Of a DNA stretch of 64,000 nucleotides, positions 54,888 to 64,000 are shown one piece after another. Where the stretch lies: positions 1-64,000 of the forward strand of contig NZ_FNCV01000004.1 of NCBI RefSeq assembly GCF_900100455.1, written 5' to 3'. Under the pieces are notes generated by a model. That model was not told where the DNA came from. It ran no database searches and saw only the letters and a program-made list of their open reading frames with translations. The DNA comes from Roseospirillum parvum (GTDB lineage Bacteria; Pseudomonadota; Alphaproteobacteria; Rhodospirillales; Rhodospirillaceae). How positions within the stretch are numbered: the first letter of the stretch is position 1; every line of letters starts with the position of its first letter. A program made the position numbers and the translations under genes.

Positions 54888-57233
54888 ATGCGTCTGGGAA
54901 CCCCGATCAAGATCGCGGCCGGCCTGGGGGCCCTTGTGGTCGTCGCCGTGATCGCCGTGGTCGTCGTGCTGATGACCATCGACGTCAACCAGTACAAGCC
55001 CGAGATCGTCGCCGAGGTGGAGAAGGCCACCGGCCGCCAGTTGACCATCGACGGCGACCTCGGCCTGTCCATCGGCCTCAGCCCGGCCATCGGCGTCGAT
55101 GGCGTGACCTTCGCCAACGCCGACTGGGGCAGCCGCCCGGAAATGGTCAAGGTCGGCCACTTCGCCGCCGAGGTGGACCTGTTCTCGCTGCTCGGCGGCG
55201 GCATCACGGTCAACCGGCTGGTGCTGGAAGACGCCGACATCCTGCTTGAGACCAAGGCCGACGGCAGCGGCAACTGGGCCATGGGCCCGGCCGAGGCGGC
55301 GCCCGCCGAAACCGAGGCGGCGCCGGCGGACAGCGGCGAGGGCGGCATGTCCGGCCTGCCGGCGATCCGCGCCGTGACCATCAAGAACGCCAGGCTGACC
55401 TACATCGACGGTACCGGCGGGCCGGGCACCGAGCTTCTGATCGAAAGCCTGGACGCCGAGGCCGATGGCCTGTCCGGGCCGCTGGCGGTCGACCTCAAGG
55501 CGGTGTTCAACCAGCTTCCGGTGACCGTGGTCGGCGATCTGCCCTCGGTTCAGGCGCTGCGCTCGGGCGGCCCGCTGCCGATGGACGTGACCATCGAGAC
55601 GGCCGGGGCCACCCTCAAGGTCAGCGGCAGCATCGCCGACGCCTTGCAGCAGAAGGGCATCGATCTGGCCATCGCCCTGTCCGGCGAGCAGATCGCCCGC
55701 CTCGCCGAGCTGCCCCAGGCGGCCGGCATGGCGGTGCCGGTGCCGGCGCTCGGCCCCTACGACATCAAGCTGGCCGCCAAGGGCGACCTGCCCAACCTGT
55801 CGATCATGGGCCTGGACGTGGAACTGGGCGAGGACGGGGCGCTGTTCATCACCGCCAAGGGCGACGTGAAGAACCCGATGGGCCCGTCCGGCATCAACGT
55901 GGCGCTCGCCGTGAAGGCCGAGGACCTCTCGGCGCTGGAGCAGATGGGCGGCGACCTGTCGGCGGTGCCGCCGTTCGAGATGGCGGCCACGGTCAAGGAT
56001 CAGGGGCCGGCCTGGGCCCTGTCGGACATCGTCTTCAAGGGGGCGGGCAGCGATCTGGCCGGCACCGCCCTGGTCGATGTCAGCGGCGCCCGGCCCAAGG
56101 CCGAGGTGGACCTGACCTCGGAGGTGCTCGATCTGGCCACCCTGATGCCGCCGGCCGAGGACGGCGCGGCGGCCGAGCCGGCGGCCAGGAAGGACAAGGT
56201 GTTCCCCTCCGACCCGCTGCCTTTCGACCTGCTGAAAATGGCCGACGCCAAGGTCAAGCTGGCGGCCGGGCAGTTGATCCTGCCCAACAAGATGCCGATC
56301 CATGACCTGTCGGTCGATCTTGCCCTGGACAACGGGCGGCTGGCCATCGCGCCGGCCGAGGCCACCCTGGGCGACGGCCGGCTGACCAGCAACGTGGTGC
56401 TCGATGCCTCCTCGGGCAGCAACGCCGGGCTGGCGGTGGATGTGATCGGTAAGCAGATCAACGCCGGCAAGCTGGTCCAGGCGATGTCGGGCGAGAAGCT
56501 GCTCACCGAGGGGCTGACCGACGTCACCGTCAAGCTGAAGGGCGGCGGGGCCTCGGTGGCGGCGCTGATGGGCAGCCTGAACGGCAACCTGCTCATCGAC
56601 ACCGGCGAGGGCAGGGTCCACAACCGGCTGCTCAACTGGGCCGGGGCGGACGTCTTCAACCAGTTGGCCGAGGAGCTCAACCCCTTCACCGAGAAGCGCG
56701 AGTACACCCCGATGATGTGCACCGTGGTCAACTTCAAGGTGACCGACGGGGTGGCGGTGACCGACCAGGGCATCGCCTTCGAGACCGACAAGATGACCGT
56801 GGTCAGCTCGGGCAAGATCAACCTGGGGACCGAGCAGTTGGACATGGCGGTGCGGCCCAAGGCCAAGTCGGGCACCGGCATCGGGGCCGGCAAGCTGGCC
56901 GAGATGGTGCGCCTCAACGGCACCCTGGCCAACCCCGGGGTCGGCCTGGACGTGGCCGGGGCGGCCAAGACCGCCGCCTCGGTCGGCGCCGCGGTGGCCA
57001 CCGGTGGCATCTCGCTGCTCGCCCAGGGGCTGATGGAGCGCTCGAGCGCCGATCCCGACCCCTGCGCCACCGCCAAGGGGGTGGCCTCGACCCGGCCCGC
57101 CGCCGAGTCGGACAACAGTGCCTCGGGCTCGCCCACCGACGCGGTCGGCGACGCGGCCAGCGGGGCCGGCAAGGCGGCCGAGGACGCCCTGAAGGGCGTC
57201 GAGGAAGGCCTTGGCGGACTGTTCGGCAACTGA
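54888..57233 (+). CDS. AsmA-family outer-membrane homeostasis protein
   Basis: A 781-residue inner-membrane protein with one N-terminal transmembrane anchor ([21 protein letters not shown] at about 12-32) and a large periplasmic part. The AsmA N-terminal domain has [20 protein letters not shown] (about 32-51), and the C-terminal AsmA_2-type domain lies near residues 560-710 ([20 protein letters not shown] to [18 protein letters not shown]). The Ala/Pro/Glu stretch near 125-150 and an acidic end are variable. AsmA-like proteins carry or bridge lipids between membranes. A strong AAAGGAGAG site precedes ATG 54888. The gene heads the asmA-ATP12-acylphosphatase run. Confidence 0.9.
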
Positions 57234-58006
57234 TGAGCAACACTTCCACCACCACCACCGGCCCGGGCGATGGCGCCCGGGCCGCCGAGCCCACCCTGAA
57301 ACCCTCCGCCAAGCGGGCCTACACCACCGCCAGCGCCGGCCCGACCGAGGGTGGCCACGCGGTGATGCTGGACCGCCGCCCGCTGTCCACGCCGGCCCGC
57401 GCGGCGCTGGTTCTGCCCTCGGCCGCCCTGGCCGGGGCGCTGGCCGAGGAGTGGCAGGCCCAGGGGCCGCGCCCGGCCCCGGCCACCATGCCCCTGACCC
57501 GGCTGGCCTTCACCGCCGTCGACCGGGTGGGCCCGGGGCGCGATCAGGTGGAGGCCAGCCTGCTGTCCCATGTGGACGGCGATCAGATCTGCTACCCGGC
57601 CGAACGCCCGGCCGCCCTGGCCGCCGCCCAGACGGCCCACTGGCAGCCCCTGCGCGACTGGGCCATGCAGGCCCTGGACGCGCCGCTCGCGGTGGCCGGC
57701 GGGGTGATGCCGGTGGCCCAGCCGCCGGCCGTGGGGCAGGCCTTCGGGGCCGCCCTCAAGCGCCTCGACGGCTGGCGGCTGACCGCCGTGCAGGAGGTCG
57801 CCGGGATCACCGGCTCGCTGGTCCTCGCCCTGGCCCTGGCCCACCGCCACCTCGATGTGGCCGGCGTCTGCGCCGCCGCCCACCTCGACGAGCGCCACCA
57901 GATGGCCGACTGGGGCGAGGACGCCGAGGCCCTGGACCGCCTCGCCCGGGCCGAGGCCGACATCGCCGCCGCCGGCCGCTTTCTCGATCTGCTGGAGGAG
58001 CCATGA
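57233..58006 (+). CDS. ATP12-family F1-ATPase assembly chaperone
   Basis: A 257-residue protein whose core starts after a Thr/Ala-rich leader of about 25 residues: [21 protein letters not shown] and [14 protein letters not shown] match ATP12, which binds free F1 alpha subunit before assembly. Further markers are [14 protein letters not shown] (about 84-97), [10 protein letters not shown] and the C-terminal [17 protein letters not shown] (about 221-237). ATP12 occurs in mitochondria and Alphaproteobacteria, so it also supports the taxonomic guess. ATG 57233 overlaps the asmA stop by one base. No atp genes are found in the window. Confidence 0.93.
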
Positions 58007-58290
58007 GCGACCCCCCGATCAGCCTGTCGGTGCGCATCACCGGCCGCGTTCAGGGCGTCTGGTATCGTGGCTGGACGGTCGAGGAGGCGACCCGCCGGGG
58101 CCTTTCGGGCTGGGTGCGCAACCGCGCCGACGGCTCGGTGGAGGCCCTGTTCCACGGCCCGGCCGACGCCGTCTCGGAGATGGTCGCCGCCTGCCACCAG
58201 GGCCCCCCCGCCGCGCGGGTGCGCGAGGTGCTGACCAGCCCCGGAACGTCCCCCGCCGAGCCCGCCTTCGTGCAGCGATCTTCGGTCTGA
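58003..58290 (+). CDS. Acylphosphatase
   Basis: A 95-residue enzyme of the acylphosphatase family. The substrate-binding loop [12 protein letters not shown] (about 14-25) contains the catalytic arginine, and the asparagine is in [19 protein letters not shown]. It hydrolyses carboxyl-phosphates such as 1,3-bisphosphoglycerate or acetyl phosphate. ATG 58003 overlaps the ATP12 stop by four bases. The usual VQGVxxR reads VQGVWYR, as in many bacteria. Confidence 0.93.
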
Positions 58291-58414: not shown

Positions 58415-59506
58415 ATGTTGCTGATGGTGCCTTTCGCGCGCCTGTTGATGCTTCTCTGCCTCGGCCTTGCCCTGGCCGGCTGTGAGCGCGTCGAGCCGGT
58501 GCGACTGGCCGCCCTGATGCCGCTCGGCGGGCCGGCGGCCTCGGTCGGCCAAAGCCTGCGCGAGGGGCTGGAACTGGCGGTCGACGAGATCAACCAGCGG
58601 GGTGGTCTGAACGCCCGGCCGATCGAACTGACGGTGGTCGACAGCACCGCCGCCCCCGGCGGCCTGGAGGCGGCCTACCACGAGGTGGTCGCGACCGACC
58701 CGCTGCTGATCATCGCCGGCACCAGCAATGTGGCGGTGGCCCTGAAGCCGCTGGCCGAGGCCGACCGTCGGCTGCTGTTCGGGCTGGTCGCCACCGCCCC
58801 GGCGCTGACCGAGAACGCCACCTGGAGCTATCGCTACTGGCCGCTGGCGGCGGCCGAGGTGCCGGCCATGCTGGCCGGCCTGCCGCCGGACGAGAACCTG
58901 AGCCTGGGGGTGGCCTTCCTCGACGACGCCTATGGACGCTCGGTGGCCGAGGGGCTGGCCGAGCATGTCCGCCGGCGCGGCGGGCGCGGTCTGATGATCC
59001 CCTTCGCCCTGACCACCACCGACTATTCCGACCTGGCCCAAACCCTGGGCGACACCGACGCGGTGGCCATCGTGGCCTTCGACGCCCACATCCGGGCGGT
59101 GCTCGAGGCGCTGGAGGCCGCCAACTACCGGGGCCGGCGGCTGGCCAGCAGCTCCGGCGCCCTGCCCGCGATGTTCGATCATCCCGCCGCCGAGGGGCTG
59201 TATGTGGCGGCCCCGGCCATCTACAATCCCAGTTTCCTGGTGTCCGAGCAGACCCGGCAGACCTACGAGGCGCGCACCGGCAAGCCCTTCGACCAGTACG
59301 CCGCCAACGGGGTCGATTTCATCCGTCTGCTGGATGGCCTGCTGGTTGATCGCGAGGTCTCCGCCGTGTCGCTGAAGGCCCGGCTGGCCGACGGCTTTGC
59401 CTATGCCGGGCTGTTCGGCAACGTCAGCCTGTCGGCCGGCGGCCACGACATCGAATTCCCCCTGCTGGCGGCCCGCGTCGAGGGCGGCCGGCTGGTCTAC
59501 CGCTGA
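58415..59506 (+). CDS. Lipoprotein type 1 periplasmic solute-binding protein
   Basis: A 363-residue lipoprotein with lipobox LAGC at about residues 19-22. The fold is that of leucine/isoleucine/valine-binding proteins: VRLAALMPLGGPAASVGQSL (about 27-46) with the typical GLELAVDEINQRGGLNARPI, then SNVAVALKPLAEADRR and VAFLDDAYGRSVAEGLAEHV. GGGAGGAGG lies five bases before ATG 58415. No permease or ATPase genes are near; instead a membrane diguanylate cyclase follows after 22 bases, so it likely delivers ligand to that sensor rather than to a transporter. The ligand is probably a small amine or amino acid, but this is unproven. Confidence 0.9.
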   Translation: MLLMVPFARLLMLLCLGLALAGCERVEPVRLAALMPLGGPAASVGQSLREGLELAVDEINQRGGLNARPIELTVVDSTAAPGGLEAAYHEVVATDPLLIIAGTSNVAVALKPLAEADRRLLFGLVATAPALTENATWSYRYWPLAAAEVPAMLAGLPPDENLSLGVAFLDDAYGRSVAEGLAEHVRRRGGRGLMIPFALTTTDYSDLAQTLGDTDAVAIVAFDAHIRAVLEALEAANYRGRRLASSSGALPAMFDHPAAEGLYVAAPAIYNPSFLVSEQTRQTYEARTGKPFDQYAANGVDFIRLLDGLLVDREVSAVSLKARLADGFAYAGLFGNVSLSAGGHDIEFPLLAARVEGGRLVYR

Positions 59507-59528
59507 GAACGGGAGGGCCGCCGCCACG

Positions 59529-61658
59529 ATGCCTGCCCGCTTTCAGCCCCGCCTGACCATCCGCGCCCGGCTGGCCATCATCACCCTGGCCGGGCTGGTG
59601 GTGCTCGGCGGACTGGGGCTTTTCACGGTGCGTGGCGCCTACCGGGCGCTGGAGGTGGCCTACGGGCAAAGCATGGCGGAAACCGCCCAGGCCATGCTGG
59701 GCCAGATCGGCGGCAGCGTGGTCGCCCGGCTCGACCAGTTGGAGCGGCTGAGTGATCGCGCCGAGGTCACCGCACGGATGCGGGCCGCCAACCGCCGGCC
59801 GCTTGACGCCGGCCCCGACACGGTGCTCTCGGAACTGCTGCGCGATGCCTTCATCGATGCCGAGCGGCGCCGCTTCGGGCGCAGCGTGTTCGCCCAGGTG
59901 GTGCTGATCGACCGCCGCGGGCTGGTCGTCGCGGCCACCGATCCGCCGGCCCGTCCGTTGCTCGCCGACCGCACCTGGTGGCGCGGCGCCATGGCCCGGG
60001 GCCGCCATGTCGGTGGCCTGGCCTACGATCCCCTGCTCGATGCCCATGGGCTGGTGGTGGCGGTGCGCCTGGACGATGCCCGCGGCCAGCCGCTGGGGGT
60101 GGCCAAGGCGCTGCTGTCGGCCGGCTGGATCATCCGCGAGGCGGCCCAGGCGGCCCAACTGGCCGGCAACACCGACATCCATCTGGTCACCGCCGACACC
60201 CGTCAGATCTTCTCCACCCGGCCCTTCCGCTTTCTCGAGCACGTCGACGACCGCCGCTACGTCAGGGCCAGTCGGGCGGCGACCGGCAACGGCGCCGGGG
60301 GCGACGATTTCGTGCAGGTCACCGAGGGCGGCCGGGCGCGCGTCTACGCCTTTGCCAGCAGCCGCTCGGCACCGGCCCTCGGCCATCTCGGCTGGACCCT
60401 GTTCGTCGGCCGCGACGCCCGGCAGGTGCTGGCTCCGGCGGAAGCCCTGGAACTGCGGATCAGCGTTGCCTACGCGGTGGTGCTGCTGGCCGGGCTGTTC
60501 GCCGCCGGGCTGCTCGCCCGCTCGCTGGCCCGGCCGGTGCTCAGGATCCGCGATGCCGCCAGCAAGATCGCCGAGGGCGACCTGGAACAGCGGGTCGACT
60601 TGAAACGCGACGACGAGATCGGCGATCTGGCCGCCGCCTTCAACCTGATGAGCGACCGTCTGCGGGACAGCTACCACGCCCTCACCGCCGAGATCGCGGT
60701 GCGCCAGAAGGCCGAGGCCGACATGGCCGCCCAGGCCCACCGCGCCCTGGAAAGCGAGATCGAGCTCAACACCCTGATCGAAAGCACCGACGACTTCATC
60801 TGGTTCGTTGATCGCGAGGGCAGGCTGGTGCTGTGGAACTCGGCGGTCAGCGACTATCGGGCCCAGCGCGGCAAGGGGCCGGTGCGGCGCGGCATCACCG
60901 CCGCCGACATGCTGCCGGCCGACAAGGCCGCCGAGTGGGAGGAGTTGTACCGGCGCACCCTGTCCGGCGAGCGGCCGATCATCGAGCTTGAGTTGTCCGA
61001 CGGCCGCCACCAGACGTTTGCCTTCGCCCCGATGATGCGCGAGGGCGAGGTGATCGGCGCCTCGGTGTTCAGCCGCGACATCACCGTCCGCCGGGCCATG
61101 GAACGCCAGCTCGAGCAACTGGCCAGCACCGATCCGCTGACCGGGGCCAGCAACCGCCGCCGGTTCATGAAACAGGCCCAGGTGGAGTGGGAGCGCAGCC
61201 AACGCTACGACAGCCCGCTGAGCCTGCTGATGATCGACATCGACCACTTCAAGTCGATCAACGACACCCACGGCCATGCCATCGGCGACAAGGTGCTGAA
61301 GGCGATGGTCATGGAGTGTATCGCCCGGCTGCGCGGCACCGACCTGCTGGGCCGCCTGGGGGGCGAGGAGTTCGCCGTCCTGTTGCCGCAGACCCCGGCC
61401 GCCGCCGCCGCGCAGACCGCCGAACGCCTGCGTCAGGCGCTGGCCGAGTTGAGCGTGGCCACCGACAACGGACCGCTGCGCTTCACGGTCAGTCTGGGGC
61501 TGGCCTGCCGGGTCGGGGCCGAGGACACCGTCGAGGAGTGCCTGCGCCGCGCCGACGCGGCCCTCTACAAGGCCAAGGCCGGCGGCCGTGATCGGCTGGT
61601 CGTCGATCCGTCCGCGTCCGGTGTCGCTCTCGAGTCGGATCGCGGCCTCGCTTCGTAA
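59529..61658 (+). CDS. Membrane diguanylate cyclase with Cache-like, HAMP, PAS and GGEEF domains
   Basis: A 709-residue sensor. TM1 is near residues 18-36 (LAIITLAGLVVLGGLGLFTV), the periplasmic part (about 40-305) resembles dCache and includes VLIDRRGLVVAATDPPARPL and HLVTADTRQIFSTRPF, TM2 is VAYAVVLLAGLFAAGLLARS at about 315, HAMP follows (RDAASKIAEGDLEQRVDLKR), then PAS about 415-540 and GGDEF about 545-700 with intact GRLGGEEFAVLLP. The inhibitory RxxD site is not obvious. It lies 22 bases behind the binding lipoprotein and 62 bases in front of the FliN-type gene. It probably makes c-di-GMP when a periplasmic ligand is sensed. Confidence 0.93.
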   Translation: MPARFQPRLTIRARLAIITLAGLVVLGGLGLFTVRGAYRALEVAYGQSMAETAQAMLGQIGGSVVARLDQLERLSDRAEVTARMRAANRRPLDAGPDTVLSELLRDAFIDAERRRFGRSVFAQVVLIDRRGLVVAATDPPARPLLADRTWWRGAMARGRHVGGLAYDPLLDAHGLVVAVRLDDARGQPLGVAKALLSAGWIIREAAQAAQLAGNTDIHLVTADTRQIFSTRPFRFLEHVDDRRYVRASRAATGNGAGGDDFVQVTEGGRARVYAFASSRSAPALGHLGWTLFVGRDARQVLAPAEALELRISVAYAVVLLAGLFAAGLLARSLARPVLRIRDAASKIAEGDLEQRVDLKRDDEIGDLAAAFNLMSDRLRDSYHALTAEIAVRQKAEADMAAQAHRALESEIELNTLIESTDDFIWFVDREGRLVLWNSAVSDYRAQRGKGPVRRGITAADMLPADKAAEWEELYRRTLSGERPIIELELSDGRHQTFAFAPMMREGEVIGASVFSRDITVRRAMERQLEQLASTDPLTGASNRRRFMKQAQVEWERSQRYDSPLSLLMIDIDHFKSINDTHGHAIGDKVLKAMVMECIARLRGTDLLGRLGGEEFAVLLPQTPAAAAAQTAERLRQALAELSVATDNGPLRFTVSLGLACRVGAEDTVEECLRRADAALYKAKAGGRDRLVVDPSASGVALESDRGLAS

Positions 61659-61720
61659 AGCCTTCGGTAACCGGAGAGGGGTAGCCTTGAGCCTCGATCC
61701 ATGGCGCTTCGGGGACCCCA

Positions 61721-62098
61721 ATGGCCGAGGAAGACGGCAGCCACACCCAAACCAGCAACGGTGGCGGCAACGGCAACGGCCCGCCGGCCGACACGGTGCT
61801 CGCCCAGGTGGCCGCCGCCGCCCTGCCCGGCAGCGCCGGGCGGCGCACCGACACGGCGGTCTACAACGTCACCGTCGAGGTCATCGTGGTCCTCGGCAAA
61901 TCCACGCTGAGGGTCAACCAGCTTCTGAAGCTGGGCCGTGGGGCGGTGGTCGAGCTGGACCAGAAGACCAACCAGCCGGTGGAAATCTACGCCAACGACA
62001 TCCTCATCGCGCGCGGCGAGGTGGTCATCGTCGAGGGCGACCGCATCGGCGTCACCCTGACCGAACTGGTCCGCTCGATCTACGACCAGCGGGGCTGA
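61721..62098 (+). CDS. fliN: FliN/SpoA-type flagellar motor switch protein
   Basis: A 125-residue protein. After a Gly/Asn-rich head (about 1-40) comes the SpoA/C-ring domain, VYNVTVEVIVVLGKSTLRV (about 47-65), NQLLKLGRGAVVELDQ and the YANDILIARGEVVIVEGDRIGV core, which are characteristic of FliN. FliN sits at the base of the flagellar C ring and controls rotation. The gene is alone, without fliM or fliG, so it may be an extra copy. The ribosome site is poor (GGGGACCCC before ATG 61721). It follows the diguanylate cyclase by 62 bases, linking c-di-GMP to motility by position. Its stop abuts that of the marR gene. Confidence 0.9.
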   Translation: MAEEDGSHTQTSNGGGNGNGPPADTVLAQVAAAALPGSAGRRTDTAVYNVTVEVIVVLGKSTLRVNQLLKLGRGAVVELDQKTNQPVEIYANDILIARGEVVIVEGDRIGVTLTELVRSIYDQRG

Positions 62099-62446
62099 TC
62101 AGCCTTCCGTCCGCGACGCCGCCACCACCAGATCGGCGAACTCACGCAGGAACACCGAGCCCTTCACCGTGCGCTGGATGAACACGTTGCGGCGGTCCGC
62201 CTCGTCGGGCTTGCGTTTGGCCAGGCCGAGCGCCGAAAGGCGGTCCACCGCCCGCGTGATGGCCGGCTTGGAAACGTTCAGCCGCTCGGCCAGACCGCGC
62301 ACGGTGTGCGGCGGCTCCTCCAGGTAGACGCACAGCAGCAGGGCCATCTGGCGGGCCGACAGGTCGGGCCCCTCGCGGCGCACGCTGTCGACCACCGCCC
62401 GATGCCACAAGGCCAACGCCTGGGCCGGCTCCAGGGTGTCTGCCAC
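62099..62446 (-). CDS. MarR-family transcriptional regulator
   Basis: A 115-residue winged-helix protein. The helix-turn-helix lies in VRGLAERLNVSKPAITRAVDRLSALGLAKRK (about residues 49-79), with the wing PDEADRRNVFIQRT and a final dimerisation helix. It is shorter than usual for MarR (about 140) because the first helix region is trimmed. The target is unknown. It faces fliN end to end without a gap and transcribes away from gshB on the same strand, 130 bases downstream of that gene. Confidence 0.88.
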   Translation of the reverse strand: MADTLEPAQALALWHRAVVDSVRREGPDLSARQMALLLCVYLEEPPHTVRGLAERLNVSKPAITRAVDRLSALGLAKRKPDEADRRNVFIQRTVKGSVFLREFADLVVAASRTEG

Positions 62447-62576: not shown

Positions 62577-63539
62577 TCAGCGCGGCAGATATGTTTCGAT
62601 GGCGTCCCAGATCATCCCGGGCAGGTTGGAGCCATCGAAACGGTCGATCTCCTGCAGGCCGGTGGGCGAGGTGACGTTGATCTCGGTCAGGCAGTCGCCG
62701 ATCACGTCGATGCCGACGAACAGCAGCCCCTGTTCCTTCAGCACCGGGCCCAGGGCGGCGCAGATGTCGCGCTCGCGCGGCGTCAGGGTGGATTTGGCGG
62801 CGCGCCCGCCGACGTGCAGATTGGAGCGCGTCTCGCCATCGCGCGGGATGCGGTTGACCGCCCCCGCCACCGCGCCGTCGATCAGGATGATGCGCTTGTC
62901 GCCCTGGCGCACCTCGGGCAGGTAGCGCTGCACCATCACCGGCTCGCGGCTGGCCGCGGCGAACATCTCAAGCAGGCTGTTGAGGTTGGTGTCCTCGGGC
63001 CTGAGGTGGAACACCCCGGCCCCGCCGTTGCCGTACAGCGGCTTGACGATGATGTCGCCGTGCTCGGCCCGGAAGTCGGCGATGGCCTTGGCATCGGCGC
63101 TGATCAGGGTGGGCGGCACGAACTCGGGAAAGGCCAGGGCGAACAGCTTTTCCGGCGCGTTGCGCACCGAGCCCGGGCGGTTGACCACCAGGGTTTCGGG
63201 CTCGATCGCCTCCAGCAGGTGGGTGGCGGTGATGTAGGCCATGTCGAACGGCGGGTCCTGGCGCATCATCACCACGTCCACGTCGGCTGCCAGGTCCAGC
63301 GTTTCCTCGGCTCCCAGGGTGGCATGGTTGCCGGCCTCGCGGCGCACCGAAAGGGGCCGCGCCCGGGCGCTGACGCGCAGCCGGCCATCGGTCCGCGCGC
63401 GGGCGCTCAAGGCCGCCGGCGGGTAGTGGAACAGGCGGTGGCCGCGCCGCTGGGCCTCGAGCGCCAGCACGAAGGTGGAGTCGGCGTTGATGTCGATGCC
63501 CTCGACGGGGTCCATCTGGAAGGCGACGGTGAGCGGCAT
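62577..63539 (-). CDS. gshB: Glutathione synthetase
   Basis: A 320-residue ATP-grasp ligase joining gamma-glutamylcysteine to glycine. The start is [19 protein letters not shown], with a family-wide MDP-x-x-x-I; then [18 protein letters not shown] (about 90-107), the ATP-binding [17 protein letters not shown] (about 187-203) and [16 protein letters not shown] near the end. It lies 35 bases downstream of the BON-domain gene on the same strand. In other Alphaproteobacteria gshB follows rsmI-yraN; here the two groups are 9 kb apart and on opposite strands. Confidence 0.96.
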
Positions 63540-63574
63540 GGCGGCGGGTCCGGTAAGTCGTTACGGGGGGGCAA

Positions 63575-64000
63575 TCAGTCGCCGGGGGCGCCCTTGATCC
63601 CGACGTAGGAGACCACCCGGCGCACGTGGGCGATGTCGCGGGCGTGGGCGATCACCCGGTCCCGCTCGGCCGCCGACTGGGCGGTGCCCATCAGATAGAC
63701 CACGCGGTCGGCCACGTCGACGGCATAGTTGATGGATAAAATCTCGCCGTCGAACAGGAGGCGGGCTTCCAGGGTCTTGGCGATCCACAGGTCGCGTCCG
63801 GCGTCGGCGGTGTCGCCCTGGGTGCGGCTGTCCTGGCCGGCCACCCGAAGCTCGTTGATGACCCGGTGGATGGCTTCCTCGCTCCAGGCCAGACGGACCG
63901 CCGCCAGCCGGAGGTCGGCGGTGTCCACCACCCCGGTCAGCAGGGCGACGCCGTCGCGCACCGTCACCGTCGCCTGGAGCGGCAGGCGGTGGTCGAACTC
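63575..64000 (-). CDS. BON-domain protein (partial, 5' end outside window)
   Basis: The frame is open to the last base, so only the C-terminal 141 residues are seen. Two BON units are visible, the first with VRDGVALLTGVVDTADLRLA and the second around NYAVDVADRVVYLMGTAQS, followed by the HARDIAHVRRVVSYVGIKG ending. BON domains bind phospholipid and stabilise the outer membrane; OsmY and DolP are the known examples. The N-terminus is not in view, so a signal peptide or lipobox cannot be confirmed. It is the probable first gene of the BON-gshB pair. Confidence 0.85.
   Translation of the reverse strand, partial: EFDHRLPLQATVTVRDGVALLTGVVDTADLRLAAVRLAWSEEAIHRVINELRVAGQDSRTQGDTADAGRDLWIAKTLEARLLFDGEILSINYAVDVADRVVYLMGTAQSAAERDRVIAHARDIAHVRRVVSYVGIKGAPGD

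What the first reader, a model, noticed from the sequence alone, without database searches (positions are those of the whole stretch)
58415..62098. Solute-binding lipoprotein, diguanylate cyclase and FliN in one run
A LIV-type binding lipoprotein with no transporter genes is followed after 22 bases by a membrane Cache-HAMP-PAS-GGEEF protein and then, 62 bases later, by a lone FliN-type protein. This suggests a sensory module in which a periplasmic ligand, through the binding protein, sets c-di-GMP and the flagellar switch.
Basis: partly seen in the sequence, partly recalled or inferred. Interest (0 to 1): 0.5.

Follow-up and report, generated by a model that had tools for sequence, protein, structure and literature searches.

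The report
Binding-protein sensor pair beside FliN
A membrane-anchored binding protein and the membrane signalling enzyme encoded next to it appear to be a true sensing pair that recurs, with different enzyme ends, in unrelated bacteria, while the flagellar-motor gene that follows is most likely a separate neighbour.

Summary

The first two are a real unit. Searches with the binding protein alone gave 15 genomes. In 14 the next gene encodes a homologue of this cyclase's membrane sensor; the 15th has both genes on different contigs. Only the sensor half is shared: the output end is GGDEF in 6, histidine kinase in 8 and HD-GYP in 1. This points to a periplasmic binding protein that acts on a dCache receptor, as NspS acts on MbaA. 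It is a separate family: LIV-type protein, no EAL domain. I found no description of it in the papers searched.

FliN is probably not part of it. It is a second FliN paralogue; two FliN copies occur in 20 of 25 same-family genomes. None of 19 relatives' second-fliN loci has the pair; 9 have a yejF-like gene and 5 a related MarR gene nearby. No fliN was found beside the pair in the 14 other genomes. Co-transcription here is possible but untested.

The complex, ligand and direction of signalling are inferred, not shown.

The parts
58415..59506 (+). LIV-type (Peripla_BP_6) solute-binding lipoprotein, 363 aa; lipobox Cys at residue 23
   Evidence: model m08df4076a644 pLDDT 90.6, Z up to 33.9 to type I binding proteins
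59529..61658 (+). Membrane diguanylate cyclase, 709 aa: dCache-HAMP-PAS-GGEEF
59625..60470 (+). Periplasmic double-Cache sensor region of the cyclase with flanking membrane-helix residues (the part conserved with the binding protein)
   Evidence: model m50ba14a03a01, pLDDT 87.3; dCache matches; homologues next to the binding protein in 14 of 15 genomes
60510..60668 (+). HAMP domain
   Evidence: Pfam PF00672
60780..61094 (+). PAS_4 domain, not found in the five other GGDEF-type partners
61122..61595 (+). GGDEF domain with GGEEF active site and RxxD inhibitory site
61721..62098 (+). Second FliN paralogue (FliN2), 125 aa; neighbour, not a conserved part of the module

Best explanation
The first two genes encode a dedicated periplasmic input module for c-di-GMP. 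A lipid-anchored type I binding protein captures a small solute; the loaded (or empty) protein docks on the double-Cache domain of the neighbouring cyclase; the movement passes through the HAMP and PAS domains and sets GGDEF activity, which also carries a product-inhibition site. The conserved unit is binding protein plus sensor; the output end is interchangeable (GGDEF, histidine kinase or HD-GYP in relatives). The third gene is an independent second FliN of the flagellar C-ring, widespread in this family of bacteria, which the pair happens to precede in this genome. Shown: gene order, predicted folds, conserved pairing, output exchange, no FliN found beside the other pairs. Inferred: physical docking, signal direction, and that FliN2 acts in the C-ring, perhaps like Caulobacter FssF. 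Unknown: the ligand (fold neighbours bind amino acids, aromatic acids, urea or amides).
For: Binding-protein-only searches gave 15 genomes; the next gene is the sensor homologue in 14 of 15, with gaps of -4 to 25 bases in 11 of those 14 and 84, 198 and 322 in three. In the 12 genomes searched with both profiles each has one strong match to the binding protein (E <= 2.2e-124; next best 1.4e-29) and one to the sensor (E <= 1.2e-92; next best 9.7e-33). In 385 class genomes the same 2 have both and none has one alone at E 1e-40; in 61 genomes of the window and its relatives the same 4 have both at E < 1e-60. Output ends: GGDEF 6, kinase 8, HD-GYP 1 of 15. Pairwise distances of the two proteins correlate (r 0.849, 0 of 20000 permutations as high). 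Three genomes came to light after the rule had been seen: 3 of 3 paired. Membrane tethering is likely: lipobox Cys in 12 of 15, a hydrophobic N-terminus without it in 3. A solved chain, 5ere, matches both folds in its two halves (Z 31.8 and 16.3).
Against: No complex was modelled or measured. The correlation of distances follows from joint inheritance and does not show contact. G445 has the two genes on different contigs, with another gene after the binding protein. The scans used alignments built from members already known to be paired, which may favour paired relatives. A second, weaker sensor-like protein that covers nearly the whole profile exists in the Hahella genome (9.7e-33) and one covering positions 5-324 in D. 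magnetovallimortis (5.8e-16), so the sensor family may extend beyond the pairs. The dCache domains of the closest solved structures bind ligands themselves, so the binding protein could be a bystander or a second input. The Omnitrophota and Anaerolineales members are metagenome bins and may be misassigned; the Omnitrophota contig is 3 kb. 5ere has only 10-15% identity to these proteins, and one paper calls it a cytosolic receptor (PMC6234866, passage).
Confidence: 0.7

Rival explanations
1. All three genes form one sensory operon: the binding protein controls the cyclase, and c-di-GMP or FliN2 dosage then tunes the flagellar switch.
For: Same strand, 22- and 62-base gaps, no promoter-like or terminator-like site found between the genes by a simple scan. 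In Caulobacter a second FliN (FssF) acts in chemotaxis and surface sensing, where two diguanylate cyclases also act (PMC11580411, passages and discussion read).
Against: 0 of 19 relatives' second-fliN loci carry the binding protein or the sensor. No FliN hit at E <= 1e-3 in the fetched loci of the 14 other genomes, 3 to 16 kb each. The MarR gene that abuts the end of fliN2 here is near it in 5 of 19 relatives, which suggests that this side is older than the arrival of the pair.
Confidence: 0.12
2. The binding protein is an orphan transport component that delivers solute to an uptake system elsewhere; it sits beside the cyclase without touching it.
For: The fold is that of ordinary LIV-type transport proteins, and such proteins can work with distant permeases (recalled). 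One of four more distant LIV-type loci used as controls (L077) also lacks LivHMGF genes nearby.
Against: No LivH or LivM match beside the pair in any of the 14 other genomes' loci (E <= 1e-10) or in window 50-64 kb; the only Liv-like hits, 25-30% identity in the Roseospira locus, are to one ABC-type ATPase. Three of the four controls (L074-L076) do have the transporter genes. The pairing persists across classes and phyla.
Confidence: 0.12
3. The cyclase's dCache domain senses its own ligand and the lipoprotein is a modulator, for example a competitor or buffer for that ligand.
For: Many of the closest solved dCache domains are titled as complexes with amino acids or organic acids.
Against: It does not by itself explain why close members of this sensor family were found only together with this binding protein.
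Confidence: 0.15

Closest known systems
NspS-MbaA (Vibrio cholerae, Sinorhizobium meliloti)
   Same: A periplasmic binding protein and a membrane c-di-GMP enzyme with HAMP domain, encoded side by side (overlapping by 3 to 16 bp, or 3 to 13 nt apart), found in under 1.4% of proteobacterial genomes searched there (PMC9993111, section 17 read).
   Different: NspS is PotD-like; MbaA has SGDEF plus an EAL domain and no RxxD site. Here the protein is LIV-type, the enzyme is GGEEF with RxxD and has no EAL, and relatives swap the output for kinase or HD-GYP.
LuxP-LuxQ
   Same: A binding protein paired with a Cache-type receptor; LuxQ stands under 'Cache - no cofactor or ligand binding' in a table of PMC8694187 (passage). 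That LuxP is the partner of LuxQ is recalled.
   Different: LuxQ is a kinase (recalled); it was not among the listed fold matches, which excludes nothing; LuxP was not compared.
5ERE, Dret_0059 of Desulfohalobium retbaense
   Same: One chain matches a type I binding-protein fold (32-352) and a dCache fold (345-593).
   Different: Fused rather than two genes; 10-15% identity to ours; its dCache is listed under cytosine (PMC8694187, passage).
FssF, second FliN of Caulobacter crescentus
   Same: A second FliN homologue beside canonical FliN in an alphaproteobacterium; 103 aa (PMC11580411).
   Different: FssF's sequence was not in hand, so orthology with this FliN2 was not tested.

Membership tests
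Binding-protein-dependent membrane receptors (general kind) | Binding protein gene conserved next to a membrane receptor gene rather than a transporter | tested here: met
   14 of 15 genomes; no LivH or LivM beside them
Binding-protein-dependent membrane receptors (general kind) | Loaded binding protein binds the receptor's periplasmic domain and changes output | not testable with these tools
   single-chain structure prediction only; no bench work
NspS-MbaA | PotD/PotF-like binding protein | tested here: not met
   Peripla_BP_6, type I fold
NspS-MbaA | Tandem GGDEF and EAL domains | tested here: not met
   no EAL match in the window cyclase or in the 14 other partners scanned, two of which were scanned incompletely
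LuxP-LuxQ | Receptor with a Cache-type periplasmic domain | tested here: met
   dCache fold, 6mni Z 19.7 over 238 residues
LuxP-LuxQ | Kinship of the binding protein with LuxP | not tested
   no LuxP comparison was run
LIV-type ABC uptake system | LivHMGF transporter genes alongside | tested here: not met
   none in window 50-64 kb at E <= 1e-15
Diguanylate cyclase | GG[DE]EF active site in a GGDEF domain | tested here: met
   GGEEF, with RxxD at the right spacing
Flagellar FliN | FliMN_C domain above curated cut-off | tested here: met
   70.2 bits against 23.8
Flagellar FliN | TIGR02480 (fliN) cut-off | tested here: not met
   78.2 bits against 84.05; the other FliN of this genome scores 102.9
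FssF (second FliN of Caulobacter) | Orthology with CC_2175 | not tested

The most novel reading that the evidence does not exclude
A tethered LIV-type binding protein and a dCache receptor form one portable two-protein input cassette. Bacteria of up to four phyla have joined it to different outputs (GGDEF, HD-GYP, or kinases, three of them with RR-GGDEF or RR-HD genes next door), most of them feeding c-di-GMP. Ligand recognition is delegated to the binding protein, and the dCache domain serves as its dock.
Probability: 0.55. Interest if true: 0.6.

Novelty: new variant of a known kind. Interest (0 to 1): 0.5.

Why it matters
To my knowledge few binding-protein-driven c-di-GMP receptors have been worked out. 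Here a strict, rare pairing with exchanged output ends marks the binding protein as partner of the sensor domain itself, giving 14 natural adjacent pairs in which to test how a binding protein drives a dCache receptor and what solute it reports. It also corrects a tempting error: the FliN next door looks like an independent neighbour, not an output of the module.

Tried and rejected
Three-gene operon as a conserved unit: rejected for FliN. Ordinary LIV uptake locus: rejected, no transporter genes; of four more distant LIV-type loci used as controls, L074-L076 have the genes and L077 does not; L061 and L063, also returned, were not examined. Plasmids: the binding protein has no plasmid match at E 1e-30; the FliN search of plasmids gave 94 records, 25 of them Azospirillum, and told nothing about the module. 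Foreign base composition: GC 0.71 for both genes of the pair against 0.69-0.78 for six neighbours; GC3 0.91 against 0.92-0.96, a slight difference. A recalled sigma-54 promoter pattern gave no match in the window. LuxQ is not among the listed fold matches, which excludes nothing. A sequence search of solved structures with the sensor profile gave mainly HAMP hits. The FliN tree has few columns and many unresolved forks: a group of 31 rows holds the 20 same-family second FliNs plus 11 from other families of the class, but second FliNs of other families in the same order fall with the canonical copies, so a single origin is not shown. Paper searches: 'Peripla_BP_6' with 'GGDEF' and 'operon', 0 papers; four more on binding proteins and receptors listed none that describes this pair, judged by title and start of abstract. 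The review of binding proteins in signalling (PMC8050422) is not held. The whole-genome profile searches scored only the best 4 to 7 candidates per genome, so the rarity figures are lower bounds.
Full report
Three genes on the + strand lie at the stated places with gaps of 22 and 62 bases. Pfam finds Peripla_BP_6 in the first, HAMP, PAS_4 and GGDEF in the second (dCache_1 only below its cut-off) and FliMN_C in the third. The lipobox, the GGEEF site and the RxxD inhibitory site are present. AlphaFold models are good for both the periplasmic sensor (pLDDT 87.3) and the binding protein (90.6). The sensor is a double-Cache domain (6mni Z 19.7 over 238 residues; the top row, Z 20.1, is an integrative model) and the binding protein a type I, LIV-like fold (Z up to 33.9). 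No LivHMGF-like genes lie in window 50-64 kb.

Is the run a unit? I tested each neighbour separately. With the binding protein as query, 9 of 61 genomes (the window's and 60 relatives) gave a match at E <= 1e-10, but only 4 gave a close one: the window's genome and G059, G015 and G048. With the cyclase's N-terminal 400 residues as query, the same four genomes gave the only matches below 1e-60; three weaker matches (G059, G057 and the window's own genome) cover its last 95 to 223 residues. In all three relatives the two genes are neighbours, 8 to 23 bases apart, and no FliN is there. Their cyclases lack the PAS domain.

A scan of named species genomes with an alignment of those four binding proteins returned 10 loci: Hahella MAG, Rhodospira trueperi, an uncultured Rhodospira, Roseospira navarrensis, a Rhodospirillales MAG, three Desulfamplus genomes (one of them D. 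magnetovallimortis), an Omnitrophota MAG and an Anaerolineales MAG. Of 385 class genomes, 2 have the binding protein at E <= 1e-40 (the window's and G306), and the same 2 have the sensor. Of 297 genomes of D. magnetovallimortis's phylum, 4 have it at E <= 1e-60, 3 of them new: G462, G540 and G465. Of 301 genomes of the Anaerolineales member's phylum and 274 of the Hahella member's class, only those members themselves matched. In total, 15 genomes.

In 14 of the 15 the gene right after the binding protein encodes a homologue of the window's sensor region. Gaps between the genes are -4, 4, 7, 7, 8, 8, 8, 17, 22, 23, 25, 84, 198 and 322 bases, with some start codons chosen by me. The exception is G445, a fragmented Desulfamplus bin: its binding protein is followed by another gene, and its sensor protein begins a separate 4.3-kb contig. 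In the 12 genomes searched with both profiles, each has one strong match to either protein. Other matches are far weaker and most of the sensor ones cover only the HAMP region; the exceptions include a protein in the Hahella genome that covers nearly the whole sensor profile at 9.7e-33 and one in D. magnetovallimortis covering positions 5-324 at 5.8e-16. Whether these have binding proteins beside them was not looked at. The binding proteins were found without regard to their neighbours, though with queries built from paired members; the last three came after the rule had been noticed, and all three fit it.

The output half is not conserved. It is GGDEF in six (window, uncultured Rhodospira, R. 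trueperi, Roseospira, Rhodospirillales MAG, Hahella MAG), all six with RxxD and GGEEF. It is a histidine kinase or hybrid kinase in eight (G306, three Desulfamplus, G462, G540, G465 and, below the Pfam cut-off on a contig end, the Omnitrophota member). It is HD-GYP-like (HD_5) after four GAF domains in the Anaerolineales member. Two Desulfamplus kinases are followed by a receiver-GGDEF protein, and the G462 kinase by a receiver and a receiver-HD_5 protein, so 10 of 15 loci hold a likely c-di-GMP enzyme as partner or next gene. That one sensor family stays with one binding protein while the far end changes is the best evidence that the two meet at the periplasmic side. Distances between species in the two proteins correlate (r 0.849; 0 of 20000 permutations as high); this is expected of co-inheritance and does not prove contact. 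The trees of the two proteins (12 genomes) are alike in their main groups but poorly resolved around the window sequence.

The binding proteins are likely tethered: a lipobox cysteine in 12 of 15, a hydrophobic N-terminus without one in the other 3. A solved protein, 5ere, matches both: residues 32-352 match the binding protein (Z 31.8, rmsd 3.5, 315 aligned) and 345-593 the sensor (Z 16.3, rmsd 4.8, 221 aligned). At 10-15% identity it shows that nature joins these two folds, not that it is a family member. A published table lists its Cache domain under cytosine and LuxQ under Cache domains without ligand (PMC8694187, passage); another paper calls 5ere a cytosolic receptor (PMC6234866, passage).

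FliN. The genome has three FliMN_C proteins on three contigs: a FliN above the TIGR02480 cut-off (C18), FliM (C8) and this one. Two FliN-type matches or more occur in 20 of 25 same-family genomes; two have one and three none, and in each of the 20 one copy groups with the canonical FliN and one with FliN2. In 19 relatives, regions of 5 to 12 kb round the second fliN hold neither the binding protein nor the sensor; a yejF-like gene is close in 9 and the window's MarR homologue in 5. Two of the 19 have a different GGDEF protein convergent with fliN2 close by. In this genome the MarR gene reads towards fliN2 and abuts its end. So fliN2 with marR looks like the older arrangement and the pair a newcomer upstream; this is an inference, and the insertion itself was not traced. 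A second FliN in Caulobacter, FssF, localises to the flagellated pole in a C-ring-dependent way, is dispensable for swimming and needed for directional switching (PMC11580411, passages and discussion read). FliN2 is plausibly of that kind, but orthology was not tested, and the FliN tree is only roughly resolved.

Comparison. The nearest characterised system I know is NspS-MbaA: binding protein and membrane c-di-GMP enzyme encoded side by side, rare in proteobacteria (PMC9993111, passages and section 17 read). It works alike but is not the same family: NspS is PotD-like and MbaA carries SGDEF and EAL without RxxD. Sensor kinases driven by binding proteins are often encoded beside them (PMC11113362, abstract and passages), and binding proteins of at least 13 families are reported to bind receptors (PMC9602780, passages). 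The general kind is therefore known; the LIV-type/dCache family with exchanged outputs was not found in the papers searched.

Limits. No complex was predicted, as the tool folds single chains. The ligand is unknown. Bins of uncultured organisms may be misassigned: the Omnitrophota and Anaerolineales binding proteins are 58% identical to that of G462, and their sensors 47% and 57%. By the titles of their records, R. trueperi and Roseospira are strains and D. magnetovallimortis an isolate, so two phyla rest on more than bins and the other two do not.

Noticed in passing
L037, L039-L045, L049 (relatives' second-fliN loci): In 9 of 19 relatives the second fliN lies next to a yejF-like gene, in 8 of them with yejE- and yejB-like genes too (names from NCBIfam matches of the L037 copies); why a C-ring gene sits there is unexplained.
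   Followed up: partly
62099-62446: MarR-type regulator read towards fliN2 and abutting its end; a homologue is near the second fliN in 5 of 19 relatives.
   Followed up: partly
L121, L126, L236: In three loci the binding-protein/kinase pair is followed by receiver proteins carrying GGDEF or HD_5 domains, a kinase route to the same second messenger.
   Followed up: partly
PDB 5ere chain: One solved chain matches the binding-protein model and the sensor model in its two halves, a natural fusion of the two folds.
   Followed up: partly
54888-58290 and 62577-64000: Upstream: AsmA family, ATP12 chaperone and acylphosphatase genes; downstream: glutathione synthetase and a BON-domain protein on the - strand; no link to the finding seen.
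   Followed up: no
L034 5357-5839, L038 6428-6898: Two relatives have a different GGDEF protein convergent with the second fliN, so a cyclase gene beside this fliN is not unique to the window.
   Followed up: no
L141 (G443:C148:165590-166843): A second, more distant sensor-like protein in the Hahella genome covers nearly the whole sensor profile (E 9.7e-33); its neighbours were not examined.
   Followed up: no
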